DNA of 64,000 bases. Source: Trichocoleus sp. FACHB-40. GTDB lineage: Bacteria; Cyanobacteriota; Cyanobacteriia; Cyanobacteriales; FACHB-T130. Location: NCBI RefSeq assembly GCF_014695915.1, contig NZ_JACJPF010000036.1, positions 124,001-188,000 of the forward strand. The letters run 5' to 3'. The notes beneath the pieces are model-generated. The model was not told the DNA's origin, did not search any database, and saw nothing but the letters and a program-made list of their open reading frames with translations. Both the position numbers and the translations under genes were made by a program. This document shows positions 10,848 through 12,338 of this stretch, in pieces; position 1 is the first letter of the stretch; each line of letters starts with the position of its first letter.

Positions 10848-11057
10848 TCAACCAAATACCTCATCTTCCCTTCCCCGCCACCACTCACCCAAATTCATTA
10901 AATCCTGATAAATATCTGCTAATTCTTTGGCATATTCCTGTGGAGAAATCGTCGGGCGACGTTCTTGGAGTTTCTTTAGGCGCAATTGCACTAATAGCCA
11001 AGGCTTGGAAATGCTATCTGTTGCTTCGAGGTATTGCGCTAGCTCTTTACTATCCAT
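10848..11057 (-). CDS. Small conserved-looking hypothetical protein
   Basis: 69 residues, highly charged and helical (MDSKELAQYLEATDSISK, then LVQLRLKKLQERR and YAKELADIYQDLMNLGEWW). No recognised domain, signal peptide or membrane segment. Composition and codon use look like real coding sequence and there is no competing frame. It stands alone between ppk1 and the HTH-ClpN gene. Function unknown. Confidence 0.55.
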   Translation of the reverse strand: MDSKELAQYLEATDSISKPWLLVQLRLKKLQERRPTISPQEYAKELADIYQDLMNLGEWWRGREDEVFG

Positions 11058-11176
11058 GATTTAGCTGGTAGGAATTTTACTTTCTTTAAACTTATATCTT
11101 GCACCTGAAAAAGTGAATGTCAATTCCATGAATAAGTGTGAAACTAGGTAGCCTCAGCCAGTTTCTGTCCTGAATT

Positions 11177-11272
11177 TATAGCGGTTTTCAATTGCGTGTA
11201 ATACGAATGTTCGTAGGGACACGGCAATGTCGTGTCCCTACAGTGTCATCTAGGCAACTGAGAATTGCTATA
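11177..11272. mobile_element. MITE-like element (TATAGC-ended family), copy 1
   Basis: Inverted ends TATAGCGGTTTTCAATTG (from 11177) and CAACTGAGAATTGCTATA (to 11272) enclose a palindrome of the form TAGGGACACGG/CGTGTCCCTA. No open frame of its own. Its right end overlaps the 3' end of the HTH-ClpN gene and supplies that protein's last residues and stop codon. Related copies lie at 13805, 34286, 43757, about 46230 and 50001. Confidence 0.7.
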
Positions 11273-11935
11273 AACCGTTTCTGCTAGTTGATTATTTAGG
11301 GCATCGAAATCAATTTCGTATCTTTGAAACAGGTCACTCAGAGTAGTCCTGTCTGTTTCTGCGAGACGGACTAAACCCCACAACAGATGTTCAGTCCCAA
11401 TAGACTTATTACCCTGAAGCCGAACGACTTGCAAGGCAAGCTCTAGAACAAACTTACTCTGTGGGCTAAATCTTGGATTCTCATGGGATTCAAAAGAATT
11501 TTCATGTGTGTCGATGTCCGCTTGGCAGCCATTGGCTCGAAGTAAACTAGCACTTGTGGTGGTTGGATCAGCCAGCAAGCCAGCAAGCAGATGTTCTGGC
11601 TCGACTTGTGATTTCTGCGAATGTGTTGCCTCATTTCGTGCGAACTTAATCGCGTTGATTGCCTTTTCAGTAAACCTCTCGAAACCAAACTCGAAACCAA
11701 AATAATTTTTGAATCGCTCAACAAGTGTTTGCATAGAATTTTTTACTTTATAGATGAAAACGTCTTCAAGTGCAACGTTGAACAGACTAGCAATTTTAAA
11801 AGCCATATCTAGGCTGGGGTCAAACTTGCCAGATTCAAAACCATTGACAGCCTGACGACTGACTCCTAATTGCCTAGCAAGGTCAGATTGTGACCACTGG
11901 TGCAGTTGTCGAAGTTCTTTCAGTCGGTTTTTCAT
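11246..11935 (-). CDS. XRE-type HTH regulator fused to a ClpC-type N-terminal domain
   Basis: 229 residues. Residues 1-64 are a compact Cro/C1-type helix-turn-helix (RLKELRQLHQWSQSDLARQL, then SRQAVNGFESGKFDPSL). Residues about 78-225 are a double Clp-N repeat: FERFTEKAINAIKFARNEA with VEPEHLLAGLL, then FVLELALQVVRLQGN with IGTEHLLWGLVRL, as in ClpC/ClpA N-domains that bind adaptors and substrates. There is no AAA+ module. It may therefore be a transcription factor that senses Clp clients or adaptors, or is handed to Clp for degradation. Two matching inverted repeats in its own promoter suggest autoregulation. The last eight residues (YSNSQLPR) and the TGA stop come from a MITE-like element. 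Confidence 0.88.
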   Translation of the reverse strand: MKNRLKELRQLHQWSQSDLARQLGVSRQAVNGFESGKFDPSLDMAFKIASLFNVALEDVFIYKVKNSMQTLVERFKNYFGFEFGFERFTEKAINAIKFARNEATHSQKSQVEPEHLLAGLLADPTTTSASLLRANGCQADIDTHENSFESHENPRFSPQSKFVLELALQVVRLQGNKSIGTEHLLWGLVRLAETDRTTLSDLFQRYEIDFDALNNQLAETVYSNSQLPR

Positions 11936-11952
11936 GGCTTTGTCTGTTCTCC

Positions 11953-11969
11953 GTCAAGTATTACTTTAC
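11953..11969. promoter_or_regulatory. Operator candidate 1, upstream of the HTH-ClpN gene
   Basis: GTCAAG-TATTA-CTTTAC, an inverted repeat with one mismatch, 18 bases before the start codon. It shares GTCAAGTAT and spacing with operator 2; their centres are 35 bp apart. It overlaps a possible minus-strand -10 (TAAAGT). Confidence 0.6.
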
Positions 11970-11984
11970 ATACTCACCCGCCTT

Positions 11985-12007
11985 TTTGTCAAGTATAGCT
12001 TGACAAA
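11985..12007. promoter_or_regulatory. Operator candidate 2, perfect 9-bp inverted repeat
   Basis: TTTGTCAAG-TATAG-CTTGACAAA, perfect arms with a 5-base spacer. It contains a consensus minus-strand -35 (TTGACA, 11987-11992), so bound repressor would block RNA polymerase. Together with operator 1 it fits negative autoregulation by an XRE protein. Confidence 0.7.
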
Positions 12008-12338
12008 GCTGATTTATAGTAACGTTTAAGGTAGTATGAAATCCGCTCCAAGCGGCATAACAACCCAGTTGAAGCAGCCTGGCAAAGTTAGTCAGTATTG
12101 TGGGAAAGGTTATCGGTAGGGACAGCAGTTCAGAGGTTATGTATGCAAGCAATCTCAACTTGCTGTTTACGTAATATCACGCTTAAATATAGTTTTTTGA
12201 ATTACTTTCGCTTCCCGCAAGGTATTTTCCGCATCTGCTGTTACTTTCTTACACCACTTATTTGGGTATTAGTGGTTTATCCTAATAGGTGCAAAATATC
12301 ACTTAAAGATCCAGGCCGCCAAAGTTTACAGATAATCA

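What the first reader, a model, noticed from the sequence alone, without database searches (positions are those of the whole stretch)
11246..12007. XRE regulator fused to a Clp N-terminal domain, with two operators
A DNA-binding HTH joined to a full double Clp-N repeat without an AAA+ motor is an unusual architecture. It suggests a transcription factor that reads the state of Clp adaptors or substrates. Two inverted repeats of the form GTCAAG-N5-CTTNAC, 35 bp apart, overlap its own promoter elements, so autoregulation is likely.
Basis: partly seen in the sequence, partly recalled or inferred. Interest (0 to 1): 0.7.

Follow-up and report, generated by a model that had tools for sequence, protein, structure and literature searches.

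The report
XRE regulator with ClpC N-domain
Some cyanobacteria carry a small DNA-binding protein joined to the docking domain of the ClpC protease motor, with two conserved binding sites over its own promoter, so it probably switches itself on when something binds that docking domain; here the gene sits in a small jumping-gene cassette.

Summary
ORF 11246-11935(-) encodes 229 aa: an XRE helix-turn-helix plus a Clp_N domain, no AAA+ motor. Two GTCAAG-N5-CTTNAC palindromes, 35 bp apart, cover a -35/-10 pair. It is no frame accident: a scan found 37 loci, 36 labelled cyanobacterial, and 34 of 35 usable upstream regions keep both operators. A relative with a similar HTH but pentapeptide repeats instead of Clp_N has the same kind of operator pair, so the HTH most likely reads it. 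The own promoter holds the sites in 16 of 17 carriers; no convincing second target emerged. The Clp_N part is ClpC-like and mostly keeps its ligand-groove and phospho-arginine-site residues. Best explanation: a self-only autorepressor whose ClpC-mimic domain binds a ClpC ligand (toxin, adaptor or substrate) and derepresses itself, as shown for mycobacterial ClpC2, but with a different DNA-binding part. Autorepression is strongly inferred; the ligand is unknown. Also new here: the gene is cargo of a 1,212-bp transposase-less IS cassette (11091-12302) with IS-type ends, a TTAAA duplication and two clean empty sites. A longer related family adds a Uma2 nuclease-like domain.

The parts
11246..11935 (-). 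XRE-Clp_N regulator gene, 229 aa (HTH residues 5-58; low-confidence linker 62-85; ClpC-type N-domain about 86-223)
11953..11969 (-). proximal operator; on the gene's strand GTAAAGTAATACTTGAC at -34; its left arm holds the -10 element TAAAGT
11988..12004 (-). distal operator; on the gene's strand GTCAAGCTATACTTGAC at -69; its right arm holds most of the -35 element TTGACA
11963..11992 (-). sigma-70-like promoter TTGACA-18-TAAAGT
11091..12302 (.). transposase-less IS cassette carrying the gene; precisely absent from a same-species genome (G005) and from G003 of another genus
11091..11106 (+). left terminal inverted repeat CTTATATCTTGCACCT
12287..12302 (-). right terminal inverted repeat (AGGTGCAAAATATCAC on the + strand)
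11086..11090 (.). TTAAA, left copy of the target duplication
12303..12307 (.). TTAAA, right copy of the target duplication

Best explanation
The protein is a dedicated autorepressor. Its XRE HTH, probably as a dimer, binds two 17-bp palindromes that cover the -35 and -10 of its own promoter and keeps its level low (strongly inferred from conservation; binding not shown). Its C-terminal domain is a copy of the ClpC N-terminal domain cut loose from the motor. It offers the surfaces that ClpC uses for cyclic peptides, unfolded segments, phospho-arginine and adaptors. Ligand binding there would loosen the HTH from DNA, so the cell makes more of the protein, which then soaks up the ligand and spares ClpC (inferred by analogy with mycobacterial ClpC2). 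Since no other target or partner gene is clearly conserved, the protein itself would be the effector. In this genome it came as the cargo of a small IS-derived cassette.
For: Both operators in 34 of 35 upstreams; spacing 35 in 27, 34 in 6, 33 in 1. An HTH-pentapeptide protein has the same kind of pair, 34 bp apart. Perfect palindrome only at the own promoter in this genome; own promoter hit in 16 of 17 carriers, the exception being a 5'-truncated copy. No neighbour family shared by more than 4 of 37 loci within 3 kb (families in 3 or more loci were printed). Clp_N matches own-genome ClpC (43% over 112 aa) and solved ClpC NTDs (Z up to 16.8). Groove and site residues in 34 homologs: F85 29, F156 28, E165 33, K161 28, E114 30, E182 34, counterparts of ClpC2 F96/F172/E181 and ClpC K85, E32/E106. 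ClpC2 works this way: twin CGTCAAC-n5-GTTGACG operators over -35/-10, relieved by cyclomarin, acting as a sponge. dN/dS 0.022-0.084 in the HTH and 0.135-0.228 in Clp_N over six comparisons.
Against: No ligand is shown. The groove residues belong to a conserved fold and could be kept for stability. F85 is G in L123-L126 and S in L122, F156 is L or I in 6 of 34, K161 is N in 6 of 34. Repeat 1 lacks its last helix. ClpC2 itself is thought to touch DNA with its Clp domain through R185/R189; those columns are Q169/L173 here, though an arginine one place earlier, R172, is R in 28 of 34, so a DNA contact by Clp_N is not fully excluded. Fold matches to ClpA, ClpB and Hsp104 N-domains are only a little lower (Z 12.7-13.9). 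The gene is rare and patchy (5 short-type carriers in 386 genomes of the phylum), and 3 of the 37 named loci have broken or truncated copies (L104, L105, L128).
Confidence: 0.55

Rival explanations
1. Proteostasis autoregulator: the Clp_N domain binds endogenous adaptors (ClpS, NblA) or unfolded chains, and the protein rises under heat or starvation as a buffer or holdase, with no toxin involved.
For: The ClpC groove also takes unfolded segments and adaptors; ClpC2 also rises mildly in heat and a holdase role was suggested; in L062 and L064 the gene follows a clpB gene on the same strand.
Against: Patchy distribution and a precise empty site in the same species suit an optional trait better than core proteostasis; a clpB-like neighbour was seen in only 2 of 37 named loci.
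Confidence: 0.3
2. Proteolysis-coupled repressor: Clp_N docks the protein on ClpC or on the ClpP/R core, so repressor half-life reports Clp protease activity.
For: The fold also matches plant ClpT1/ClpT2 (Z 15.4 and 15.7), accessory subunits of the Clp core; K161 and E182 match ClpC contact residues.
Against: I did not look for a degron or a ClpP-binding loop, and fold similarity alone does not show binding.
Confidence: 0.15
3. Passenger of a mobile element: the regulator only limits its own expression inside a selfish cassette and does nothing for the host.
For: The gene sits in an IS-derived cassette with a precise empty site in the same species.
Against: Homologs and 15 other than the window's and G004's show no such pair of ends within the fetched flanks; purifying selection on both domains; the ClpC-like groove is mostly kept.
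Confidence: 0.1

Closest known systems
Mycobacterial ClpC2 (PMC10030653; abstract, passages, sections 7 and 13 seen)
   Same: Motor-less ClpC N-domain as C-terminal half; represses its own promoter; twin palindromes GTCAA-N7-TTGAC over -35/-10; groove Phe/Phe/Glu
   Different: Different N-terminal domain (four-helix dimer bundle versus XRE HTH); ClpC2 DNA contact is ascribed to Arg185/Arg189 of the Clp domain, whose columns are Q and L here; a cyanobacterial rather than actinobacterial family; IS cargo in this genome
Small XRE/PbsX repressors: CylR2 (1utx), D. radiodurans dr_2454 (9k3w)
   Same: HTH domain superimposes (rmsd 0.7 A to 9k3w, 1.2 A to 1utx)
   Different: Those chains are 63-66 residues long, with no C-terminal ligand domain
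HTH-Clp_N-Uma2 proteins of cyanobacteria (long family, e.g. L034, L067)
   Same: HTH plus double Clp_N; palindromes upstream of the gene (16 bp, in 10 of 10 looked at, two of them 21 bp apart in 4)
   Different: Extra Uma2 nuclease-like domain (Pfam E 4.2e-24 and 8.9e-23 in two members); palindrome one base shorter
Passenger genes and mobile insertion cassettes of IS4-type elements (PMC2266710, passages)
   Same: IS ends enclosing a gene that is not a transposase, short target duplication
   Different: IS701/IS4-like ends of a cyanobacterial IS; the cargo is a transcription regulator and there is no transposase gene

Membership tests
XRE (HTH_3) DNA-binding proteins | HTH_3 domain over the curated cut-off | tested here: met
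   58.7 bits versus cut-off 23; model 0.7 A to 9k3w
Clp_N domain proteins | Clp_N over the curated cut-off and ClpC-NTD fold | tested here: met
   46.6 bits versus 20.7; Z up to 16.8 to ClpC NTDs; repeat 1 shortened
Clp ATPases | AAA+ motor domains | tested here: not met
   229 aa, no AAA match in Pfam at E up to 1
ClpC2 (mycobacterial type) | motor-less ClpC NTD as C-terminal half | tested here: met
ClpC2 (mycobacterial type) | four-helix N-terminal dimer domain without ClpC homology | tested here: not met
   an XRE HTH takes its place (the ClpC2 domain is described)
ClpC2 (mycobacterial type) | Arg185/Arg189 of the Clp domain for DNA contact | tested here: not met
   Q169 and L173 in those columns; R172, one place earlier, is R in 28 of 34
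ClpC2 (mycobacterial type) | twin palindromic operators over own -35/-10 | tested here: met
   sequence only:
ClpC2 (mycobacterial type) | derepression by a ClpC-binding peptide | not testable with these tools
   needs EMSA and a reporter
Mobile insertion cassette (IS ends without transposase) | terminal inverted repeats plus target duplication plus empty site | tested here: met
Mobile insertion cassette (IS ends without transposase) | ends shared with a transposase-bearing IS | tested here: met
   left 48 bp 85-90%, right about 134 bp 69-71% to the IS in L171 and L172; weaker but matching ends in L180
Mobile insertion cassette (IS ends without transposase) | moves when transposase is given in trans | not testable with these tools
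   needs a mobility assay

The most novel reading that the evidence does not exclude
An 'integrated decoy' immune regulator: a copy of the attacked domain of ClpC fused to a repressor, so that any molecule aimed at ClpC (a cyclic peptide of a competitor, or a phage protein) is bound, sensed and sponged by one self-inducing gene, and this one-gene defence can move between cyanobacteria as a transposase-less IS cassette; the long family would couple the same sensor to a Uma2 nuclease.
Probability: 0.25. Interest if true: 0.8.

Novelty: new variant of a known kind. Interest (0 to 1): 0.6.

Why it matters
ClpC N-domain binders are antibiotic leads, and sensing of such a compound by a ClpC-like regulator is described for mycobacterial ClpC2; I found no second case in my searches. 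Cyanobacteria make many cyclic peptides (general knowledge); a conserved, self-regulated ClpC mimic there would be a ready biosensor for ClpC-directed compounds and for native Clp adaptors. It would also show the sponge-and-sensor logic of ClpC2 built from a different DNA-binding domain.

Tried and rejected
Rejected: a frame accident (37 loci; purifying selection). Largely rejected: the Clp_N domain reads the operator, as proposed for ClpC2; a similar operator pair goes with the HTH in L033, which lacks Clp_N, the long family with another HTH version has 16-bp palindromes, and the two ClpC2 arginine columns differ.

Regulon looked for and not found. GTNAAG-N5-CTTGAC gave 83 strand hits in 17 genomes against 69 for the reversed control (sums); by my count 43 of the 83 are at the gene's own promoter. 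Results against 'self only': the perfect palindrome GTCAAGTTTACCTTGAC recurs in G021 and G133 (one genus), inside a clpB coding sequence in both; I take it for coding conservation. Another 17-mer recurs in G133 and G237 but lies inside unrelated ORFs. Of ten loci with a site outside the own promoter that I read, seven sites are inside ORFs, one is between two 3' ends (L141), and two are intergenic (L045; L048, 56 bp before an infA-like ORF of the window's genome). Two weak sites lie upstream of clpC (L132 in an acetyltransferase-like ORF; G000:C69:19788 at 1 mismatch, its gene not read). Gene names here are from my reading of the translations.

Operator control: 7 of 200 other ORF upstreams had a site at 2 mismatches or fewer, 3 of them two; by their coordinates six look into the regulator's own promoter from the other side, and L103 is the one stray. 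Rows dropped: L128 (5'-truncated) and L105 (too little upstream) from the footprint; L104, L105, L128 from the pocket count (34 of 37 used). L096 has one operator only. One search printed 34 of 36 because it still counted L128.

Other: the protein search of plasmids gave 614 records, none covering 80% of the query. dN/dS for G004 is uninformative (dS 0.02 in the HTH, ratio 0.556) and several values for L121, L124 and L126 are saturated. The genome search scored at most 7 candidates per genome, so carriers may have been missed.

Literature: the rows listed by searches (8 to 15 rows each, of up to thousands of papers) show none on an XRE-Clp_N regulator; the cyanobacterial Clp review PMC7966870 has no occurrence of 'XRE' or 'helix-turn-helix' (passages). 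That is a statement about these searches only. Other papers seen: PMC12583610 passages, PMC2701414 passages, PMC7159879 one passage, PMC2266710 passages. The meaning of 'mobile insertion cassette' is recalled; the term appears.

Full report
WHAT IS THERE. The ORF at 11246-11935 on the minus strand encodes 229 aa. Residues 5-58 are an XRE helix-turn-helix (HTH_3, E 5.8e-16) and the C-terminal half is a Clp_N domain (E 3.8e-12, two stretches); no AAA+ motor was matched. A ten-sequence AlphaFold2 model has mean pLDDT 79 and pTM 0.62, with a poorly defined stretch at 62-85. The HTH superimposes on D. radiodurans dr_2454 (9k3w, 0.7 A) and CylR2 (1utx, 1.2 A), and residues 81-227 on ClpC N-domains (best Z 16.8; the ClpC rows listed run from 12.9 to 16.8, rmsd 2.5-4.6 A); ClpA, ClpB and Hsp104 N-domains follow at 12.7-13.9. 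Repeat 1 of Clp_N has three helices and repeat 2 four, so it is a slightly shortened double repeat. The window's genome has four full-length ORFs with Clp_N (829-902 aa) plus this protein; the only one of them that matches this protein at E 1e-10 is the 829-aa ClpC (43% over 112 aa).

OPERATORS. The palindromes at 11953-11969 and 11988-12004 are 35 bp apart start to start, and no other place in the window matches with at most one mismatch. On the gene's strand the distal operator ends in the -35 box TTGACA (its last base lies just outside) and the proximal one begins with the -10 box TAAAGT (10 of 12 matches, spacer 18). In named homologs the distal consensus is GTCAAG-N5-CTTGAC at about -69 and the proximal one GTAAAG-N5-CTTGAC at about -34. 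Of 35 usable upstreams 34 hold both with at most 2 mismatches; spacing is 35 in 27, 34 in 6 and 33 in 1. Shuffled upstreams gave both sites 0.0 times on average. The proximal left arm has A at position 3 in 33 of 34 sites, where the distal arm has C in 28 of 35; this fits its double duty as a -10 element (inference).

WHICH DOMAIN READS THEM. L033 is a protein with a related HTH (72% over residues 1-82) and pentapeptide repeats instead of Clp_N; it has GTCAAGTGCTACTTGAC at -67 and GTAAAGTAATACTTGAC at -33, 34 bp apart. The long family, with another HTH version, has a 16-bp palindrome (4-bp centre) in 10 of 10 upstreams looked at with a rule made after seeing them, and two of them 21 bp apart in 4 of 10. 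The sites therefore go with the HTH.

TARGETS. In the window's genome the perfect palindrome occurs only here. Across 17 carriers searched for GTNAAG-N5-CTTGAC the own promoter is hit in 16 (the 17th, G172, has a 5'-truncated copy); all hits together are 83 against 69 in the reversed control, and 40 of the 83 lie elsewhere by my count (sums). Of ten such places read, seven are inside ORFs. One perfect palindrome recurs inside clpB of two species of one genus; I count it as coding conservation, though that does not prove the absence of a target. Neighbouring gene families are shared by at most 4 of 37 named loci within 3 kb, mostly close relatives (only families in 3 or more loci were printed), and the 17 longer loci agree. 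Two Pleurocapsales loci have clpB upstream. The regulator seems to control only itself.

THE CLP_N DOMAIN AS A CLPC MIMIC. Mycobacterial ClpC2, also a motor-less ClpC N-domain protein, binds cyclomarin through F96, F172, E181 and Q94. The counterparts of the first three are F85, F156 and E165, kept in 29, 28 and 33 of 34 homologs; Q94 is F83 here and is not kept as Q. The counterpart of K85, which cyclic peptides touch and which anchors the ClpC resting state, is K161 (28 of 34). The glutamates of the phospho-arginine sites (E32/E106 in S. aureus ClpC; I equate E32 with E31 of the own-genome ClpC) correspond to E114 (30 of 34) and E182 (34 of 34). Structural conservation could account for part of this. 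In the long family the E165 position is kept in 1 of 9.

HOW IT MOST LIKELY WORKS. ClpC2 represses its own promoter at twin CGTCAAC-n5-GTTGACG sites over -35/-10; cyclomarin releases it, and the extra ClpC2 acts as a sponge that protects ClpC1. The cyanobacterial protein has the same layout (self-control, twin operators of similar form, a motor-less ClpC ligand domain) but a different DNA-binding part. The half-sites GTCAA/TTGAC are shared by both systems, which may partly reflect the -35 box; I do not claim a common origin of the operators. So it works like ClpC2 but is not a member: the N-terminal domain differs, and so do the two arginine columns. Steps supported by sequence: fusion, operators, HTH reading, no clear regulon, mostly kept groove. 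Steps inferred: repression, ligand, release, sponge effect.

DISTRIBUTION. In the order, 29 of 388 genomes match at E 1e-15: 18 have the short fusion (one of them truncated; one, G216, has a long one too), 9 only a long one, 1 the HTH-pentapeptide protein, and 1 an ordinary ClpC (types by ORF length and translations, Pfam run on five). In a phylum-wide sample 7 of 386 match at E 1e-20, 5 short and 2 long. In 84,980 species genomes a scan limited to two HTH peptide patterns gave 37 loci; the matched stretch covers both domains in all of them, from residue 29 on in L128. Three copies are broken or truncated (L104, L105, L128). A tree of 39 rows puts the window protein with G004 (100/99), nearest by path to Scytonema and Tolypothrix; 14 of 36 inner branches are open. 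dN/dS against six homologs is 0.022-0.084 in the HTH and 0.135-0.228 in Clp_N.

THE CASSETTE. A genome of the same species (G005) and one of another genus (G003) lack exactly window 11091-12302; the flanks abut at a single TTAAA, which stands on both sides of the insert here. The ends are 16-bp imperfect inverted repeats, CTTATATCTTGCACCT and AGGTGCAAAATATCAC. Two Nostoc plasmids carry an IS of about 1.37-1.39 kb with the same ends (left 48 bp 85-90%, right about 134 bp 69-71%) around a 373-aa DDE transposase, closest to IS701 and IS4 models but under their cut-offs. G004, which carries the same cassette in another genus (98% protein identity), also has a copy of such an IS with similar ends, in which the search reported stop codons; G000 has a copy whose transposase matches in three frames. 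G004's cassette has lost its right end. The cassette is thus best read as IS ends with the transposase gene replaced by the regulator. The other homologs show no such pair of ends within the fetched flanks; the named loci were not scanned for ends. So the mobility is indicated for this lineage only.

VERDICT. It is a new variant of a known kind: ClpC2-like logic in a different construction, with an unknown ligand.

Noticed in passing
L034-L042, L044, L067, L068, L069: A second cyanobacterial architecture, HTH-Clp_N(x2)-Uma2 (394-417 aa in those translated), with 16-bp palindromes upstream: a ClpC-type sensor joined to a nuclease-fold domain. Domain content checked by Pfam in two members.
   Followed up: partly
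L033:976-1746 (-): A similar HTH and operator pair followed by pentapeptide repeats instead of Clp_N; the promoter-plus-HTH unit seems to be recombined with different C-terminal domains.
   Followed up: partly
window 11175-11274: A dispersed palindromic repeat (core GTAGGGACACGGCA..TGTCGTGTCCCTAC) overlaps the 3' end of the gene; the window and G004 proteins are 8 residues longer than the common 221; similar repeats occur at many places in relatives.
   Followed up: partly
G000:C19:24252-25330 (L179): A decayed copy of a related IS, its transposase matched in three frames, between perfect 16-bp inverted repeats CTCACATCTTGCACCA.
   Followed up: partly
L095 / G242:C149: A contig labelled Tatlockia (Legionellaceae) MAG holds the fusion; a contig of the same length (11,359 bases) lies in G242, a genome of the window's order, so the label is probably wrong.
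   Followed up: partly
L104, L105: Two named copies have an early stop in the reading frame, after 13 and after 129 codons: decaying or missequenced copies.
   Followed up: no
L062, L064: In two Pleurocapsales loci the gene stands downstream of clpB on the same strand (about 650 and 145 bp apart).
   Followed up: no
L148 and L182 (clpB); L132; G000:C69:19788; L048: Operator-like sites inside clpB of two species, upstream of clpC in two genomes, and before an infA-like ORF; probably coding conservation or chance.
   Followed up: partly
window 10848-11057 (-): A 69-aa ORF between ppk and the cassette, also present in G004; function unknown.
   Followed up: no
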